This document shows positions 31,899 to 39,578 of a stretch of DNA of 64,000 nucleotides, one piece after another. This DNA comes from Pseudomonas sp. RC10 (GTDB taxonomy: Bacteria > Pseudomonadota > Gammaproteobacteria > Pseudomonadales > Pseudomonadaceae). The stretch lies in contig NZ_CP151650.1 in NCBI RefSeq assembly GCF_038397775.1, positions 3,162,001-3,226,000 on the forward strand, read 5' to 3'. The translations under genes and the position numbers were made by a program. The first letter of the stretch is position 1, and the number at the start of each line of letters is the position of its first letter. Under the pieces are notes generated by a model that saw only the letters and a list, made by a program, of their open reading frames with translations, did not search any database and was not told the DNA's origin.

Positions 31899-32004
31899 GG
31901 CGCTTCCCTCTGAGGTCTCAGCGAAGGGAAGGCGCAAAGCAAACCACTGACCGACGTCAGTAGCCAACTCAACAGCGCCCGCCCACCGCGGGTTTGTTAT
32001 GTGA

Positions 32005-32190
32005 ATGTGTCGGGCCGGTCTCCGGGCTTGCGAGGGGCAGTGGACCTGCCGTCAAGAATCACCTTCCCGTGCCGCAATGACACAGTGGATCTGATTCTTC
32101 GCTCGCTTACCGTTGCGGGGGCAGCGCCGGACTTGCACAGACAAGAGGTCTGCACGCACCGGTTTCCCGTTTCACCCTGTGAAGGGCACC
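32005..32190 (-). ncRNA. Cobalamin riboswitch controlling cbtB-cbtA-cobE-cobM
   Basis: On the minus strand, in order: a GGTGC start of the aptamer near 32185, the AAGTCCGG and GCTGCCCCCGCAACGGTA core (complement of about 32100-32140), a GGGAAGG stretch (about 32062-32070) and the AAGCCCGGAGACC closing segment (about 32020-32035). This is the normal order of B12-box elements. It ends about 110 bp before the cbtB start, leaving room for an expression platform. High adenosylcobalamin should turn off cobalt uptake and the cob genes. Confidence 0.9.
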
Positions 32191-32289
32191 CGTAACAAGG
32201 CGTGTAGGAGACCACGGAGCCGGTTGGCAGTCAATCGCAGCGCCGTTTCCTCGTTGACCTTCCCCCGGCCACTGCGTAGCCTTGCGCAC

Positions 32290-32490
32290 TTGAGGTTCGC
32301 TGCTCTGCTTGAGTCGGACGCGGCGCTAAGAAGGGAATGTGGTGCAAGCCACAGCTGCCCCCGCAACTGTAAACGGTCATGTTCATTGCACAGCCACTGC
32401 GCGAGCGGGAAGGCGCGATGAATGCGTCTGATCTGGCAACCCTGCCAGCCATTCGCCGCCGTGAGCCAGGAGACCTGCCTCGAACACGGG
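32290..32490 (+). ncRNA. Cobalamin riboswitch controlling cobW-cobN
   Basis: On the plus strand: AAGAAGGGAATGTGGTGCAA, CCACAGCTGCCCCCGCAACT and GTAA at 32329-32373, then CCACTGCGCGAGCGGGAAGG at 32394-32413, and GTGAGCCAGGAGACCTGCCT at 32461-32480. These are the conserved aptamer blocks of the cobalamin family. The cobW start is 140 bp further on. It faces away from the other riboswitch, so the 730 bp gap holds two back-to-back B12-controlled leaders. Confidence 0.93.
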
Positions 32491-32629
32491 CCTGTTTTTC
32501 AGACAGCCCGACGCATTCTCAACACAACCGGGCGGGGTGATCCGGTGGCGAATTGAACGGCAGGCCTGTCTTCTGCGAGGGCAACGCGGTTCTCGTCCTG
32601 TTTGCCCGCCGCTGCGCCTGAGGGCAACC

Positions 32630-33700
32630 ATGAAAACACTGGCCAAACTTCCCGTCACCATCGTCACCGGCTTTCTCGGCTCGGGCAAAACCACGCTGCT
32701 GCGCCACATGCTCGACAACGCCGAAGGCCGTCGCATCGCGGTGATCGTCAACGAATTCGGCGAGCTGGGCATCGACGGTGAAATCCTCAAGCAATGCACC
32801 ATCGGTTGCACCGAAGAAGAGGCCAACGGCCGCGTCTACGAACTGGCCAACGGCTGCCTGTGCTGCACCGTTCAGGAAGAATTTTTCCCGGTGATGCAAG
32901 AACTGGTTGCCCGTCGCGGCGATCTGGACCACATCCTCATCGAAACCTCGGGCCTGGCGCTGCCAAAGCCGCTGGTCCAGGCTTTCCAGTGGCCGGAAAT
33001 CCGCAACGCCTGCACCGTTGACGCCGTGATCACCGTGGTCGACAGCCCGGCCGTCATCGCCGGCACCTTCGCCGCCTTCCCGGATCAGGTCGATGCCCAG
33101 CGCAAACTCGACCCGAACCTGGACCACGAATCGCCGCTGCACGAACTGTTCGCCGACCAACTGGCCAGCGCTGACCTCGTCATCCTCAATAAGGCCGACA
33201 TGCTCGACGCTGCTGCCTTGGCTTCCGTGCGCGCCGAAGTCGCCGAAGAACTGCCGCCTGCGGTGAAAGTCATCGAAGCCAGCAACGGCCAGCTGCCGAT
33301 CAGCGTGCTGTTGGGCCTGGGTGCCGAATCCGAGCTGCACATCGATGGCCGCAAGACCCACCACGATCATCACGACGGCGATGACCACGACGACCACGAT
33401 CACGATGCTTTCGATTCGATCTCCATCTCGCTGCCCCAGGCGGACGAAGCGCTGTTGCTCGACGCGCTGACCCAGGCCGTCGTGCAGCACGGCATCCTGC
33501 GCGTCAAAGGCTTCGCGGCGATTCCGGGCAAGCCGATGCGCCTGCTGGTGCAAGGCGTCGGCACCCGTTTCGACAAACACTTCGACCGCGCGTGGAAAGC
33601 CGATGAAGAGCGCGTCAGCCACTTCGTGCTGATCGGTCAGGAACTGGACGCTGCCGTGCTGGAAGCCCAGCTGCGCGCCGCGCTTGAGATCAAAGGCTAA
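32630..33700 (+). CDS. cobW: CobW-type metallochaperone GTPase
   Basis: 356 residues. G3E GTPase with P-loop GFLGSGKT at 14-21, the zinc/cobalt cysteine motif GCLCCTV, and an acid/histidine tract (HHDHHDGDDHDDHDHD, about residues 240-258) between the GTPase and the C-terminal CobW_C domain. It is thought to deliver cobalt to the CobN-type chelatase. It directly follows a cobalamin riboswitch and precedes cobN by 2 bp. The ATG at 32630 begins the conserved N-terminus; the upstream open frame lies in the riboswitch leader. Confidence 0.95.
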   Translation: MKTLAKLPVTIVTGFLGSGKTTLLRHMLDNAEGRRIAVIVNEFGELGIDGEILKQCTIGCTEEEANGRVYELANGCLCCTVQEEFFPVMQELVARRGDLDHILIETSGLALPKPLVQAFQWPEIRNACTVDAVITVVDSPAVIAGTFAAFPDQVDAQRKLDPNLDHESPLHELFADQLASADLVILNKADMLDAAALASVRAEVAEELPPAVKVIEASNGQLPISVLLGLGAESELHIDGRKTHHDHHDGDDHDDHDHDAFDSISISLPQADEALLLDALTQAVVQHGILRVKGFAAIPGKPMRLLVQGVGTRFDKHFDRAWKADEERVSHFVLIGQELDAAVLEAQLRAALEIKG

Positions 33701-33702
33701 CC

Positions 33703-36700
33703 ATGCACCTGCTGCGCACCCAGCCCGGCGGCTTCGTCCCCGACGACTGCATCGCTGACCTCGGTCAGACCCCCGCCGATCTGGTGATCCTGTGCAGCGG
33801 CGATTCCCATCTGGCATTGCTCGCGGAAACCGCGCAGCAGCTGCCGGACGACTACCCCAGCCTGCGCCTGGCCAACCCCATGCAGGTGCAGAACCACGCC
33901 TCGGTCGACCTGTACGTCGAAGAGGTGTTGCAGCACGCCAAGGTCATCCTCATTTCGCTGCACGGCGGCATCGGCTACTGGCGCTACGGTGTGGAGCGGT
34001 TGGTGGAGCTGGCCTCTAGAAAGCGCGGCGGGGTGAAGCTGATTCTGGTGCCCGGCGATGACCGTCCCGACCCGGAACTCAGCGACCTCAGCACCGAACC
34101 TGCCGAGGACCGCGACCGGCTTTGGCACTACCTGCGCCAGGGCGGAAAACACAACGCCCTGCAGCTATTCAATTGCCTGGCCAATCGTTGGCTGGACCGC
34201 GATTACCCCTGGGACGAACCGCAGACATTGCCCCGTGTCGCGATTTATCACCCGCGCAAGGCCAGCGCCGACCTCGCTGACTGGCAAGCCGACTGGCGCG
34301 CCGACCAACCGGTGGCGGCAGTGCTGTTCTATCGCTCGCACTTGCAGGCGGCCAACACCAGGTTCATCGATGTGTTCTGTGAGCGGCTGTTGGCCCAGGG
34401 CCTTAACCCGCTGCCCATTGCGGTGGCCAGCCTGAAGGAACCGGCGTGCCTCAGCGCCGTGCAGGACTGGCTCGACGAGACCGATTGCGAGGTCATACTC
34501 AACACCACCGGTTTCGCCCAATCCAGCCCCGAAGTGCCGCACCTGCGACCGTTTCGCCGCAACATTCCGGTGATTCAGGCGATCTGCGCCCAAGACAACG
34601 AACCTGCGTGGCGAGCCAGCGAACAGGGCCTCGGCGCTCGGGATCTGGCCATGCACATTGCGCTGCCGGAACTGGACGGACGCATCATCAGCCGGCCCAT
34701 CAGCTTCAAGGACCTGGCCTGGCACAGCGAGCGCAGTCAGTCCGATGTGGTCTGCTACCGCGCCCAGCCTGAGCGCATGGATTTCGTCGCCGAACTGGCG
34801 CGACGCTGGGTGTTGCTGGCGCGCACGGCCAACGCCGACAAGCGCGTGGCGCTGATTCTGGCCAACTACCCGACCCGCGACGGGCGCATCGGTAATGGCG
34901 TCGGCCTGGATACCCCGGCAGCAGCGCTGAACATCCTCAAGGCCCTGCAAGACGAGGGCTATCCCGTCGAAGGTTTGCCGGAATCGGGCACCGCGCTGAT
35001 TCATGCCTTGCTGGGCGGCGTCACCAACGACCCGGACAGCCTCGATCAGCGCCCTTGCCACCAGAGCATGGCGATGGACGATTACCTGGCGGCCTTTGAT
35101 GCGCTACCTGAGGCCAATCGCGACGCCGTGATCGAGCGCTGGGGTTCACCGCAGAGCGACCCGATGTGTCGCAACGGCCGAATGATGATCGCCGGGCTGC
35201 GTTTCGGCCTGACCTTTGTCGGCATTCAGCCGGCTCGGGGCTACAACGTCGATCACAGCGCGGTTTATCACGATCCGGACCTCGTTCCGCCCCACGGCTA
35301 CCTGGCCTTCTATTTCTGGCTGCGCAAGGCGTATGGCGCACACGCGGTCATTCACGTCGGCAAACACGGCAATCTGGAATGGCTGCCGGGCAAGGGCGTC
35401 GGCCTGTCCGAACAGTGCTGGCCGGACGCGATCCTCGGGCCGATGCCGAACATTTATCCGTTCATCGTCAACGACCCGGGTGAGGGCGCCCAAGCCAAGC
35501 GTCGCACGCAGGCCGTCATCATCGACCACCTGATGCCGCCCCTGACCCGCGCCGAAACCTACGGCCCATTACGCAATCTGGAATTGCTCGCGGACGAGTA
35601 TTACGAAGCGCAGCTGCTCGATCCGCGCCGCGCCCGTGAGCTGCAAAAGGATATTCTCAGGCTGGTGCGCGAAACCCACATCGACCGGGAACTGGCGCTG
35701 AGCGAAGACCTCGACAGCGATGCCGATGCCGCGATCTGGTTGCCCCGGCTGGACACGTACCTGTGTGATCTGAAGGAATCGCAGATCCGCGACGGGCTGC
35801 ACGTGTTTGGCGAATCCCCGAGCGGGCGACTGCGTATTGATACCTTGGTGGCGATCCTGCGGGTGCCCCGTGGCGATGGCCGGGGGGCGAATGCCAGTCT
35901 ACTGCGGACCTTGAGCAACGCGCTGGCGCTGGGTTTTGACCCGTTGGACTGCGAGTTGGGTGCGCCGTGGGCGGGGCCGACACCTCAGGTTTTACATGAA
36001 GTCAGTGATGATCCGTGGCGCACGGTAGGGGATACACGGGAGCGGCTGGAGCTGTATGCAGCGCATCTGGTTGAGCAGATCGCGAGCGATATTCAAGAAA
36101 TTAATTCGTTTGCAAACAATGAATTATCTGAAGTTATTAATGCAATTAGAGAGGTTGTGATACCGCGTCTCGACAGCTGTGGGCCTGTAGAAATTCAAGG
36201 CTTGCTGGATGCGCTGAGTGGCCGTTTTGTCCCGGCAGGCCCCAGTGGCGCGCCGAGTCGCGGGCGGCTGGACGTGCTGCCGACAGGGCGTAATTTCTTC
36301 TCGGTGGACGTGCGCAACCTGCCGACCATGACCGCGTGGCGCATCGGATTTAAATCCGCAAATCTCTTGCTGGAAAGGCACTTACAAGACAATGGTGACT
36401 ATTTACGTCAACTTGGCTTGTCGGTCTGGGGCACGGCGACCATGCGCACCGGAGGCGACGACATTGCCCAGGCCATGGCGCTGATGGGCGTGCGTCCGGT
36501 GTGGGCGACGGGGAGTCAGCGGGTTGACGATTTCGAGATTTTGCCCCTGAGTTTGCTGGACCGGCCACGGGTGGATGTCACGCTGAGGGTGTCGGGATTC
36601 TTCCGCGATGCTTTCGCCAACCTCATTCGCTTGTTTGATGCCGCCGTGCAAGCCGTCGCCGCGCTGGATGAGCCGGACGACATGAATCCGCTCGCCGCCC

Positions 36701-37476
36701 GCGTTCGTCAGGAGCGCGAGCAACTGGAGCGCGAAGGCTTGAGCGTCGAACAGGCGGCGAAACAGGCTGGCTGGCGCATCTTTGGTGCCAAACCGGGGGC
36801 CTATGGCGCGGGTGTGCAGAACGCCATTGACGGCCGCCTGTGGCAAACGCGGGAAGACCTGGCTGAGGTGTACCTGAACTGGGGCGGCTATGCCTATGGC
36901 GCCGCCGATGAAGGCACCCCCGCGCGCAACGACTTCGCCAAACGCCTGAGCCAGGTCCAAGCCGTGGTGCAGAATCAGGACAACCGCGAGCACGACCTGC
37001 TCGACTCCAACGACTATTACCAGTTTCAGGGCGGCATGCTGGCGGCGGTGGAAAGCCTCAGCGGCGACAAGGTGGCGAGCTACCACGGCGACCACAGCCA
37101 GCCAGACTTGCCGAAAATCCGTACCTTGAAAGAAGAGTTGAACCGGGTGGTGCGTTCGCGGGCGGCGAATCCGAAGTGGATCGAAGGCGTCAAACGGCAC
37201 GGCTATAAAGGCGCGTTCGAAATGGCGGCGACCGTGGATTTCCTGTTCGCGTTTGATGCGACGACCGAGCTGATCGACGATCACCAATACGCGCTGCTAG
37301 CCGACGCCTACCTGCTCGACGCCTCGACGCGGGACTTCATCCAGCAACACAATCCCGATGCCCTGCGCGACATGACCGAGCGGATGCTGGAAGCTCAGCA
37401 GCGGGGCCTGTGGCAAGAGCCGGGCGACTACCGCGCGGCGCTGGAAAACTTGTTGTTGGATATAGAAGAAAGCTGA
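33703..37476 (+). CDS. cobN: Cobaltochelatase large subunit CobN
   Basis: 1257 residues, usual for CobN/BchH-type large subunits that insert cobalt into hydrogenobyrinic acid a,c-diamide using ATP. Conserved blocks include VIHVGKHGNLEWLPGKGVGL, LEWLPGKG being the family hallmark, FIVNDPGEGAQAKRR and GGYAYG. It needs ATPase and VWA partners (CobS/CobT or ChlI/ChlD type); these are supplied by the frameshift gene downstream. Two short stretches (36083-36165 and 36345-36415) are AT-rich and use TTA, AGA, ATA and AGG codons that are otherwise avoided in this gene. Confidence 0.96.
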   Translation: MHLLRTQPGGFVPDDCIADLGQTPADLVILCSGDSHLALLAETAQQLPDDYPSLRLANPMQVQNHASVDLYVEEVLQHAKVILISLHGGIGYWRYGVERLVELASRKRGGVKLILVPGDDRPDPELSDLSTEPAEDRDRLWHYLRQGGKHNALQLFNCLANRWLDRDYPWDEPQTLPRVAIYHPRKASADLADWQADWRADQPVAAVLFYRSHLQAANTRFIDVFCERLLAQGLNPLPIAVASLKEPACLSAVQDWLDETDCEVILNTTGFAQSSPEVPHLRPFRRNIPVIQAICAQDNEPAWRASEQGLGARDLAMHIALPELDGRIISRPISFKDLAWHSERSQSDVVCYRAQPERMDFVAELARRWVLLARTANADKRVALILANYPTRDGRIGNGVGLDTPAAALNILKALQDEGYPVEGLPESGTALIHALLGGVTNDPDSLDQRPCHQSMAMDDYLAAFDALPEANRDAVIERWGSPQSDPMCRNGRMMIAGLRFGLTFVGIQPARGYNVDHSAVYHDPDLVPPHGYLAFYFWLRKAYGAHAVIHVGKHGNLEWLPGKGVGLSEQCWPDAILGPMPNIYPFIVNDPGEGAQAKRRTQAVIIDHLMPPLTRAETYGPLRNLELLADEYYEAQLLDPRRARELQKDILRLVRETHIDRELALSEDLDSDADAAIWLPRLDTYLCDLKESQIRDGLHVFGESPSGRLRIDTLVAILRVPRGDGRGANASLLRTLSNALALGFDPLDCELGAPWAGPTPQVLHEVSDDPWRTVGDTRERLELYAAHLVEQIASDIQEINSFANNELSEVINAIREVVIPRLDSCGPVEIQGLLDALSGRFVPAGPSGAPSRGRLDVLPTGRNFFSVDVRNLPTMTAWRIGFKSANLLLERHLQDNGDYLRQLGLSVWGTATMRTGGDDIAQAMALMGVRPVWATGSQRVDDFEILPLSLLDRPRVDVTLRVSGFFRDAFANLIRLFDAAVQAVAALDEPDDMNPLAARVRQEREQLEREGLSVEQAAKQAGWRIFGAKPGAYGAGVQNAIDGRLWQTREDLAEVYLNWGGYAYGAADEGTPARNDFAKRLSQVQAVVQNQDNREHDLLDSNDYYQFQGGMLAAVESLSGDKVASYHGDHSQPDLPKIRTLKEELNRVVRSRAANPKWIEGVKRHGYKGAFEMAATVDFLFAFDATTELIDDHQYALLADAYLLDASTRDFIQQHNPDALRDMTERMLEAQQRGLWQEPGDYRAALENLLLDIEES

Positions 37477-37491
37477 GAGCCGTTGCTGGTT

Positions 37492-37644
37492 TTTTGATTC
37501 TGGCCGAAGGCGCTGAATGGCGTTCGAAATACCTGCGATGCTGCGACAGATTGGAGGCCTTTGATTCTGGCCGAAGGCCTTGATGGACGTTGAAGGGCTT
37601 GTAGGGTTGCAGCAGATTGATGACTTTTGATTCTGGCCGAAGGC
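37492..37644. repeat. Degenerate tandem repeat, about 67-bp unit
   Basis: TTTTGATTCTGGCCGAAGGC starts at 37492, recurs (19 of 20 bases) at 37560 and exactly at 37625. The rest of each unit is similar but diverged. The third copy runs straight into the type-B REP doublet. Confidence 0.8.
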
Positions 37645-37775
37645 CGTAGGAGCTGGCTTGCCTGCGATCTGCTGCGAAGCAGTAGTAAACCCTGATTGCT
37701 CGATGTGCCTGACACATCGGGTGCACCGGATTTGCTGCCGCTTCGCGCCAGATCGCAGGCAAGCCAGCTCCTACG
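37645..37775. repeat. REP doublet, type B (inverted pair)
   Basis: CGTAGGAGCTGGCTTGCCTG and its inverse ending CCAGCTCCTACG. The inner arms CTGCTGCGAAGC and GCTGCCGCTTCGCG match the copy at 3867-3992. Together with the tandem repeats it fills the 426 bp gap between cobN and the ATPase gene. Confidence 0.85.
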
Positions 37776-37902
37776 CCTATCGGCAGAAGCAGGATGGCGG
37801 CGTTATGGCCCTCCGGCAGAAGCAGCACCGCGGTATTTGTCCGCTCTTTGGGAAAAACGAACCGTGTGAACATTAATTTTGATGCATGAACAGAGCCGAA
37901 CC

Positions 37903-38913
37903 ATGACCAACACCCCTCACTTTCCCCTGGCCGCCGTCGTGGGCGCCGACGCGCTGAAACTGGCGCTGTGCCTGACCGCCATCGACCCGAAAATCGGCGG
38001 GGTGTTGATCGAGGGGCCGCGGGGTATGGCCAAGTCCACCCTGGCCCGTGGGCTCGCTGACCTGTTGGCCAGCGGTCAGTTCGTCACGCTGCCGTTGGGC
38101 GCGACCGAGGAGCGGCTGGTGGGCACGCTGGACCTGGACGCGGCGCTGGGGGAAGGGCGGGCGCGTTTTTCGCCGGGGGTCTTGGCCAAGGCTGATGGCG
38201 GCGTGCTCTATGTCGATGAAGTCAACCTGTTGCCGGATCATCTGGTCGACCTGCTGCTGGACGTGGCGGCCAGCGGAATCAATCAGGTCGAGCGCGACGG
38301 TATTTCCCATCGTCACCCGGCGCGCTTCGTGCTGATCGGCACCATGAACCCGGAAGAAGGTGAATTGCGTCCACAGCTGCTCGACCGCTTCGGTTTGAAC
38401 GTCGCGTTGAGCGGCCAGACCTTGCCCGAGCAGCGTGGCCAGATCATTCGCCGTCGGCTGGCCTTTGACGCGGACCCTGAGGGCTTTTGTCAGCACTGGG
38501 CGACCCAACAGCAACAGCTCAAAGACCGTTGCGAAAACGCCCGAGGCCTGCTGTCGGGCATCGAACTGGACGACGTCAGCCTCGCTGCCATCACTGAGCG
38601 CTGTTTCGCGGCGGGGGTCGATGGCCTGCGGGCGGACCTCGTCTGGCTGCGCGCTGCCCGTGCCCATGCGGCATGGCGAGGCGCTTCGGCCATTACGGAC
38701 GAAGACATCGATGCCGTGGCCGAATTCGCCTTGCGCCATCGACGTCGTGAGGCTCCGCCACCCCAGTCGCCAGCGGCCTCGCAACCGGACGCGCCCGCGC
38801 ACGCACCCCACACGCAAAAAGAGCAGGGCGACGGCCAATGGGGTGAACTGCCCGCCCAGACGGTTGCCACCGGCGTTCGCCGAGAAGTGCCCAGCTGGCC
38901 AAAAAAGCCCTAG
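37903..38913 (+). CDS. ChlI-like AAA+ ATPase, small chelatase subunit (zero-frame product)
   Basis: 336 residues. AAA+ Mg/Co-chelatase domain with Walker A GPRGMAKST, the ChlI segment LPLGATEERLVGTLDLDAAL, Walker B VLYVDEVNLL and sensor region GTMNPEEGELRPQLLDRFG. It ends in a proline-rich tail and PKKP-stop. With a VWA partner it drives metal insertion by CobN, whose gene is 426 bp upstream. The last codons contain A AAA AAG, and a -1 shift continues into the VWA domain. The ATG at 37903 fits the family N-terminus (MTNTPHFPLAAVVGADALK); an ATG at 37882 is an alternative. Confidence 0.93.
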   Translation: MTNTPHFPLAAVVGADALKLALCLTAIDPKIGGVLIEGPRGMAKSTLARGLADLLASGQFVTLPLGATEERLVGTLDLDAALGEGRARFSPGVLAKADGGVLYVDEVNLLPDHLVDLLLDVAASGINQVERDGISHRHPARFVLIGTMNPEEGELRPQLLDRFGLNVALSGQTLPEQRGQIIRRRLAFDADPEGFCQHWATQQQQLKDRCENARGLLSGIELDDVSLAAITERCFAAGVDGLRADLVWLRAARAHAAWRGASAITDEDIDAVAEFALRHRRREAPPPQSPAASQPDAPAHAPHTQKEQGDGQWGELPAQTVATGVRREVPSWPKKP

Positions 38914-38948
38914 GCATTCGCCCTCGCCCTAAGACGGGGGCGGATGCC
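38901..38948 (+). promoter_or_regulatory. Programmed -1 ribosomal frameshift signal
   Basis: The slippery heptamer A AAA AAG (38901-38907) is in the zero-frame phase CCA AAA AAG, as in dnaX. After a 5-nt spacer a hairpin begins: 38913-38926 pairs with 38935-38948 (14 bp including two G-U) with an 8-nt loop. The zero-frame stop TAG is at 38911, so unshifted ribosomes end inside the signal. The -1 frame is open from here to 39578. All three elements (heptamer phase, spacer length, stem) match a classical signal. Confidence 0.9.
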
Positions 38949-39578
38949 AGCCCCCGACCGGGTCGACTCAGCGGCGGTAAAAGCGGTGCTGCCCGCTCTG
39001 GGACCGAGGGCGCCATTGCCTGGCTCCCTACGTTGCTGAAAGGCCGCCCCCAGCGCCGCGCCGATCTGGTTCGTCAGCCGCGAACCCGGCGTGAGCACGT
39101 GCTGTGGCTGGTGATTGTCGACGCCTCGGCCTCGACCCGACGCCATCAAGCGTTGAGCCTCGCCAAAGGCGTTCTCGCGCAACTGTTCGATGACGCGTAT
39201 CGCCAGCGGGCGAGGATGGCGTTGTTGACCGCCAGCGGTGTGCAGGCGCGCTGGCAGCATCACGGCCTGAAAGCAGGCTCGGCGTTGCAGCCGTGGCTGG
39301 AAACGTTGGGGGCGGGGGGTGGGACGCCGCTGTTCGAGGCCATCGAACAGGCAGGGCAGTGGCTGGGCAAACGCCAGCAACGTCATCCGGGCGAATCGCA
39401 ACGGGTGCTGATCCTGACAGATGGCCGCGTGAAGGACATTCCGCCTCTCACGGGTTTCCACTGCCCGAGCCTGTTGATCGACATCGAGCGTGGGCCCATC
39501 CGGCTGGGAAGGGCCGTCGAACTCGCCCGTCAATTGCACGCCGAATACCGGCATATCGATGCATTGACGGACGCTTGA
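38907..39578 (+). CDS. VWA-domain extension, made as ATPase-VWA (ChlD-like) fusion by -1 frameshift
   Basis: 223 residues after the shift, giving a fusion of about 558 residues from 37903. A basic, glycine-rich linker (GGKSGAARSG) leads to a von Willebrand A domain whose MIDAS motif is DASAS (in VIVDASASTRR), with the second element GGGTPLFEAI and the third LTDGR. This is the medium (ChlD/CobT-like) chelatase subunit. Between the heptamer and 39033 there is no ATG or GTG in this frame; the first candidate is a TTG at 39033 with no ribosome site, and it would cut off the linker. Independent initiation is therefore unlikely. Confidence 0.88.
   Translation, partial: ALGIRPRPKTGADASPRPGRLSGGKSGAARSGTEGAIAWLPTLLKGRPQRRADLVRQPRTRREHVLWLVIVDASASTRRHQALSLAKGVLAQLFDDAYRQRARMALLTASGVQARWQHHGLKAGSALQPWLETLGAGGGTPLFEAIEQAGQWLGKRQQRHPGESQRVLILTDGRVKDIPPLTGFHCPSLLIDIERGPIRLGRAVELARQLHAEYRHIDALTDA

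What the first reader, a model, noticed from the sequence alone, without database searches (positions are those of the whole stretch)
38901..39578. Programmed -1 frameshift making two cobalt-chelatase subunits from one gene
The ChlI-like ATPase frame ends (TAG 38911) right after an in-phase A AAA AAG heptamer. A 14-bp hairpin begins 5 nt later, and the -1 frame runs straight into a glycine-rich linker and a VWA domain. No ATG or GTG initiates the VWA frame. The gene lies downstream of cobW and cobN, and no cobS/cobT or second small subunit is in the window. Unshifted ribosomes would give the small subunit and shifted ones the ChlD-like medium subunit. Such chlD frameshifting has been reported for cobalamin producers (I recall Antonov, 2020, not checked here); this locus appears to be a clean Pseudomonas example.
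Basis: partly seen in the sequence, partly recalled or inferred. Interest (0 to 1): 0.9.

Follow-up and report, generated by a model that had tools for sequence, protein, structure and literature searches.

The report
Frameshift gene encoding two cobalt-chelatase subunits
A Pseudomonas vitamin B12 gene appears to make two enzyme subunits from one message by letting some ribosomes slip back one base, a trick already published for this gene and genus; a related marine genus may use the same trick in the opposite direction.

Summary
In-phase A AAA AAG at 38901-38907 is followed by one codon, a TAG stop and, 5 nt after the heptamer, a 14-bp stem; the -1 frame runs into a VWA domain with no ATG or GTG start near the junction. 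Best explanation: -1 frameshifting in a fused chlI/chlD gene serving CobN. Of 157 Pseudomonas loci with both halves (160 fetched), 153 keep the heptamer in phase, each with one codon before the stop; codon choices point to selection on heptamer, stop and stem core. The genome has no second strong ChlI match, no CobT match, and only UUU tRNA-Lys. This is published: PMC3711429, PMC5009743 (printing a P. protegens stem) and PMC9227772 name Pseudomonas. Not found in the held papers: in Marinomonas both halves share one frame, yet 38 of 43 distinct ORFs carry in-phase G GGA AAG in the linker, 35 with an SD-like element, and a -1 stop within 11 codons. That suggests a mirror-image, dnaX-like signal whose shift makes the small subunit; it is untested, and most fused genes of other genera show none.

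The parts
32276..32496 (+). cobalamin riboswitch aptamer ahead of cobW-cobN-chlID
   Evidence: Rfam RF00174, 102.3 bits, gathering 31.5
32630..33700 (+). cobW
   Evidence: TIGR02475, 529.1 bits, over cut-off
33703..37476 (+). cobN, large cobaltochelatase subunit
   Evidence: TIGR02257, 1749.3 bits, over cut-off
37903..38913 (+). zero frame: AAA+ ATPase, ChlI-like small subunit, 336 aa (an earlier in-frame ATG at 37882 is possible)
   Evidence: TIGR02442, TIGR02030 and Pfam AAA matches; ORF
38901..38907 (+). slippery heptamer A AAA AAG, in phase
   Evidence: sequence; in phase in 153 of 157 Pseudomonas loci
38911..38913 (+). zero-frame stop TAG, one codon after the heptamer
   Evidence: same spacing in 153 of 153 loci with the heptamer
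38913..38948 (+). 14-bp stem-loop, 5 nt after the heptamer
   Evidence: fold and shuffles; pair conservation, core only
38907..39578 (+). -1 frame: linker and VWA domain; with the codons up to 38907 predicted to give the ChlD-like medium subunit
   Evidence: TIGR02442 459-641 and PF13519; aligns to the C-terminal part of an uninterrupted Marinomonas orthologue

Best explanation
This is an fs-chlD gene of the aerobic B12 pathway. Ribosomes that stay in frame stop at TAG 38911 and release the ChlI-like ATPase (small subunit). Ribosomes that slip back one base on A AAA AAG, helped by the downstream stem, read into the -1 frame and make an ATPase-linker-VWA protein of 558 residues if translation starts at 37903 (medium subunit). 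Both then form the motor that acts with CobN to insert cobalt. Shown here: the anatomy, its conservation, codon-level constraint, no second strong ChlI match and no CobT match in the genome, and the gene's place downstream of a B12 riboswitch, cobW and cobN. Inferred: that shifting happens in this species, its rate, and the assembly of the two products.
For: 153 of 157 loci keep the in-phase heptamer and all 153 have one codon plus stop after it; 152 of 153 have the VWA frame at -1. The heptamer's first A is the wobble base of a codon whose amino acid varies (CCA 108, GCA 31, ACA 7, TCA 3, GAA 2, CTA 2), while CCA is 11.7% of Pro codons elsewhere. The -1-frame codon that holds the first two bases of the zero-frame stop is CTA, CTG, TTA, TTG or GTA and never CTC or CTT (CTC is 13% of Leu codons elsewhere). 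Stem codons avoid common synonyms: AAT 44 and AAC 0, GCG 127 and GCC 3, against 70% AAC and 31% GCG elsewhere. In 95 distinct in-register stems pair 10-35 is C-G 56, U-A 28, U-G 11 and never C-A, where 16.5 would be expected by chance. Only UUU tRNA-Lys among 65 tRNA matches. CobN is over its cut-off in 24 of 26 Pseudomonas tested with the gene and in 1 of the 24 without. Published: -1 shifting of 63, 40 and 10% in E. coli for three genes of this cluster.
Against: No shift was measured in Pseudomonas here, and the three published cassettes have 7-11 As, not A AAA AAG. The outer part of the 14-bp stem is not general: pairs 5-40, 14-31, 16-29, 17-28 and 18-27 hold in 58-76 of 95 distinct stems, and 13 of 153 loci are out of the stem's register altogether. 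The RNAalifold covariation term was unfavourable (+0.46) although the energy was lower than in 100 of 100 column shuffles. An SD-like element upstream, as in dnaX, is present in only 25 of 153 by my pattern list. The synonymous-constraint peak at the lysine codons is partly built in, because the 153 were chosen for the heptamer. One of 17 Pseudomonas genomes with the gene that were searched for CobT (G235) has a weak CobT match (E 9.4e-7). Many fused genes of other genera, some with CobN checked, have no visible signal, so the small subunit may not always be needed.
Confidence: 0.93

Rival explanations
1. Two separate genes: the VWA protein starts by internal initiation or by re-initiation after the stop.
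For: A TTG at 39033 could open a 181-aa VWA frame.
Against: No start codon is conserved in position near the junction in 153 loci; the first one at or after the heptamer varies from codon 1 to 70, with codon 42 the commonest, in 42. It would leave codon-level constraint on the heptamer unexplained.
Confidence: 0.03
2. RNA polymerase slips on the A run and some messages carry an extra A.
For: A slippage-prone A run is present; five split loci of other genera have A9-A10 at the same place.
Against: In Pseudomonas the run is six As in 151 of 153 loci and seven in 2 (base before the heptamer C 149, T 2, A 2), with a G after it and a stem 5 nt on in this locus, which fit ribosomal slippage better. 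The conservation data alone do not exclude it.
Confidence: 0.03
3. A frameshift mutation or sequencing error in a dying gene.
For: Two halves in different frames is what an error gives.
Against: The same arrangement in 153 of 157 Pseudomonas loci with both frames conserved.
Confidence: 0.01

Closest known systems
fs-chlD / magnesium chelatase recoding cluster (PMC3711429; PMC5009743 section 18; PMC9227772)
   Same: Genus Pseudomonas, -1 direction, A_AAA_AAR site, downstream stem potential, small and medium Co-chelatase subunits proposed.
   Different: Nothing essential; this is another Pseudomonas locus with a stem like the one printed for P. protegens.
dnaX of E. coli (as described in passages of PMC3711429)
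   Same: A_AAA_AAG with a downstream hairpin; one gene, two subunits.
   Different: There the shift gives the short product; here it gives the long one. The upstream SD-like stimulator of dnaX is not conserved here (25 of 153). The Marinomonas orthologues look like dnaX in polarity.
Separate chlI and chlD genes
   Same: Same two products.
   Different: Among 244 genomes of the order, both genes were seen in G437, G509 and G614; G559 shows a stand-alone chlI-like ORF only and G533 two partial pieces at contig ends.

Membership tests
fs-chlD (published recoding family) | ChlI-like part and VWA part in overlapping frames, shift -1 | tested here: met
fs-chlD (published recoding family) | A-rich slippery heptamer in phase | tested here: met
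fs-chlD (published recoding family) | Downstream RNA structure | tested here: met
   the core is conserved in in-register loci, the outer stem is not
fs-chlD (published recoding family) | cobN present, no separate small-subunit gene | tested here: met
   CobS's own model was not searched and two weak ATPase matches were not classified
fs-chlD (published recoding family) | Measured frameshifting | not testable with these tools
   needs a reporter or mass spectrometry
TIGR02442 putative cobaltochelatase | Score over the curated cut-off 779.45 | tested here: not met
   halves score 417.8 and 71.6; the joined product was not scored; an uninterrupted Marinomonas orthologue also falls short, 461.2
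CobS/CobT type cobaltochelatase | CobT (PF06213) match | tested here: not met
   0 matches in the genome

The most novel reading that the evidence does not exclude
One-gene cobaltochelatase recoding exists in both polarities. In Pseudomonas the shift makes the long subunit. In Marinomonas, where both halves share one frame, an SD-like element plus in-phase G GGA AAG and an early -1 stop makes the short subunit by a dnaX-like shift. The signal sits at three different places in the linker in different Marinomonas clades, so it was moved or gained more than once while the need for two products stayed.
Probability: 0.65. Interest if true: 0.6.

Novelty: already known. Interest (0 to 1): 0.35.

Why it matters
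For the window itself, little is new: the mechanism, genus and heptamer class are in print. The genus survey adds numbers for constraint on the heptamer, the stop and the stem core. If the Marinomonas reading holds, orthologous genes reach the same pair of proteins by opposite frameshift logic, which would make the need for both a short and a long chelatase subunit testable and give a natural experiment in how recoding signals arise and move.

Tried and rejected
Transcript slippage, internal initiation and pseudogene were weighed and set aside (see rivals). A conserved upstream SD-like element in Pseudomonas: found in only 25 of 153. A conserved hairpin after the Marinomonas heptamer: not found (RNAalifold -0.22; 16 of 200 column shuffles as low; single-sequence z below -1.5 in 13 of 30). 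A general dnaX-like signal in fused orthologues of other genera: not found; in 57 distinct ORFs GGGAAAG lies in the linker 3 times, all in phase, one with an SD-like element (L332, Amphritea MAG), and 4 times elsewhere; AAAAAAG is in phase in 2 of 16 linker occurrences, one with an SD-like element (L362, Osedax symbiont); runs of seven As show no phase preference. CobT-like ORFs of 551-657 aa occur in 10 of 48 Marinomonas genomes, among them G567, the source of L223; one of the ten (G648) has neither cobN nor the chelatase gene. I take them for another VWA protein, unproven. No structure was predicted. Papers seen only as passages without bearing on the verdict: PMC8211752, PMC7242693, PMC7689651.

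Full report
Anatomy. The zero frame from ATG 37903 (or an earlier in-frame start) encodes an AAA+ ATPase and ends ...CCA AAA AAG CCC TAG at 38913. A AAA AAG at 38901-38907 is in the X XXY YYZ phase. A 14-bp stem with an 8-nt loop starts 5 nt after it. The -1 frame is open through 38907 to the TGA at 39576-39578 and holds a linker and a VWA domain (PF13519). Both parts align, in order, to a single uninterrupted orthologue from Marinomonas: 51% identity over its residues 1-349 and 31% over 375-583. Upstream lie cobW and cobN and, ahead of them, a cobalamin riboswitch at 32276-32496; a second one at 31996-32208 points the other way. The nearest solved structures by sequence to the ATPase part are ChlI/BchI chains.

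Genome. The window lies in a complete 6.7-Mb chromosome. The ATPase part has one strong match there (E 1.7e-224) and six weaker ones (E 7.6e-9 to 9.3e-4). The four best of those match Pfam AAA_3 (two, MoxR-type as I recall that family) and sigma-54 activators (two); the last two were not classified. CobT (PF06213) has no match. CobS's own model was not searched. Of 65 tRNA-model matches, all within stretches read by ARAGORN, the only lysine anticodon is UUU, at two genes; that lack of a CUU tRNA favours slipping on A AAA AAG is recalled.

Genus survey. Of 398 Pseudomonas genomes, 374 match the ATPase part at E below 1e-90 and 24 only above 1e-11. I fetched 160 loci from 159 of those genomes, not all 374, taking the best matches and a set of weaker ones. 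Of the 160, 157 hold both halves and 3 lack the VWA half (L146, L152 and L153, all of which end with their contigs). In 153 of 157 the heptamer is in phase, followed in all 153 by exactly one codon and a stop (TAG 95, TGA 55, TAA 3); the VWA frame is -1 in 152. The four exceptions: L149 has the heptamer but an upstream break in the ATPase frame; L158, L159 and L210 have altered A runs, L158 and L159 in genomes where the ATPase frame or cobN is also in pieces. The wobble base before the lysine codons, the zero-frame stop and the stem core all show codon choices that the protein does not require (numbers under evidence).

Synonymous constraint. A scan puts the top window of the ATPase frame at the heptamer, and the top windows of the -1 frame at the 3' arm of the stem, codons 8 to 15. 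Two cautions: the lysine codons are fixed by the choice of the 153, and the highest single column of the ATPase frame lies elsewhere (a serine, column 138). The stem counts use the 140 of 153 loci (95 distinct stems) that have GAT or AAT at codon 12, a filter that fixes two bases of the 3' arm and limits a third to G or A; within it C-A is never seen at pair 10-35 although 16.5 would be expected. On a tree of the loci that pair shows two same-branch double changes and 13 single ones, and the stop changed kind 8 times but was never lost among the 153, which were chosen for the heptamer, not for the stop.

Co-occurrence. In 50 Pseudomonas genomes chosen to include all 24 without the gene, CobN (TIGR02257) exceeds its cut-off in 24 of 26 with the gene; the other two have pieces (G162 on two contigs, G330 a short stretch). 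Of the 24 without it, one (G273, whose cobN match ends at base 93 of its contig) has CobN, seven have a distant 1,400-1,490-aa CobN-like ORF, and 16 have no match.

What is known. PMC3711429 (passages and section 24 read) reports a cluster of 23 magnesium chelatase genes with a -1 shift, naming Pseudomonas, and 63, 40 and 10% shifting for three cassettes in E. coli. PMC5009743 (passages and section 18 read) names Pseudomonas and A_AAA_AAR under purifying selection, prints the stem sequence of P. protegens and says that the stem sequence is not strongly conserved. PMC9227772 (parts 1-3 of 4 and passages read) lists Pseudomonas aeruginosa as a species using fs-chlD for both subunits. The 2020 paper by Antonov is not held; what I know of it is recalled. 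The window's feature is therefore already known.

The mirror image. In 244 genomes of the same order, 54 match TIGR02442 at E 1e-60, in three layouts: split frames, separate chlI and chlD, and one uninterrupted ORF of about 570-680 aa. Five split loci of other genera carry A9-A10 runs (L250, L251, L253, L256, L257; a sixth, L259, has seven As further from its stop) where Pseudomonas has A6G and a stem. Genus g28 is Marinomonas by match to named records. There, 45 of 48 genomes match TIGR02442 once and none twice at E 1e-50 (in G655 the frame is only 328 aa), and 45 of 48 have CobN. In a first set of 45 loci, 30 share the linker motif E-V-T-P-G-K, typically written GAG GTR ACG CCG GGA AAG: GGA 29 of 30 (8% of glycine codons elsewhere), AAG 30 of 30 (27%), CCG 29 of 29 (28%), GAG 29 of 29 (38%). 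This is the strongest synonymous-constraint window of the 596-column alignment. It spells an SD-like GAGG, then 7 nt, then G GGA AAG in phase, a heptamer that PMC5009743 calls highly shift-prone in E. coli. In these 30 the -1 stop comes after 1 codon in 19, 3 in 6, 11 in 4 and 17 in 1 (two of the 30, L281 and L288, lack the heptamer); elsewhere in these ORFs the median is 10 and 23% are within 3.

Other Marinomonas clades carry the same heptamer elsewhere in the linker, some 50 codons upstream, in a different protein context: seven loci with a -1 stop after 7 codons, two with 5. Over 43 distinct ORFs, GGGAAAG is in the linker in 38, in phase each time, and nowhere else in those ORFs; 35 have an SD-like element 4-18 nt upstream by a pattern list of my own. 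Two ORFs were dropped from that count because my VWA anchor missed them: L270 has the in-phase heptamer, L278 has only an out-of-phase GGGAAAG before the linker. Including them, one search gives 39 of 45 (it files L270 with the far class, although its motif is the near one). Of three named loci that the script also missed, L333 has the same context as L270, L328 the same as L278, and L330 has none. Six of the 45 lack the signal: L263, L274, L278, L281, L288, L295. The simplest reading is a dnaX-like -1 shift that makes the short subunit from a gene whose zero frame makes the long one.

Limits. No conserved hairpin follows the Marinomonas heptamer. In 57 distinct fused ORFs of other genera a comparable signal is rare, so either they make the small subunit otherwise or do not need it. 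Ten of 48 Marinomonas genomes have a CobT-like ORF of unknown role. Searches of the held library for print on this mirror image; none of the titles and abstract starts listed describes it (one search listed 10 of 51 papers), and the 2020 paper remains unread, so it may already be described there.

These do not change my odds.

Noticed in passing
L217, L223, L229, L232, L234, L244, L262-L298 (Marinomonas, not every one): In-phase G GGA AAG with, in most, an SD-like element and an early -1 stop in the linker of uninterrupted chlID genes, at three placements in different clades.
   Followed up: yes
L332 (Amphritea MAG), L362 (Osedax symbiont): Single cases of SD-like element plus in-phase GGGAAAG or AAAAAAG with a -1 stop 1 and 11 codons on, in fused chlID genes of other genera.
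   Followed up: partly
G060, G082, G180, G185, G242, G260, G317: Pseudomonas genomes without fs-chlD that carry a distant 1,400-1,490-aa CobN-like ORF; four of them (G060, G185, G242, G260) also have a CobT-like ORF of 768-921 aa. A HmuS-like or other class I chelatase is a guess.
   Followed up: partly
window 37475-37784: Between cobN and the chelatase gene: three 38-nt direct repeats spaced 66-67 nt and a 72-nt inverted repeat, 79% complementary; a sub-threshold Rfam miRNA hit falls on it.
   Followed up: no
window 31996-32208 and 32276-32496: Two divergent cobalamin riboswitches back to back; one faces cobW-cobN, the other the opposite strand.
   Followed up: no
L250, L251, L253, L256, L257: Split chelatase genes of other genera use A9-A10 runs where Pseudomonas uses A6G plus a stem, a possible trade-off between run length and stem.
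   Followed up: no
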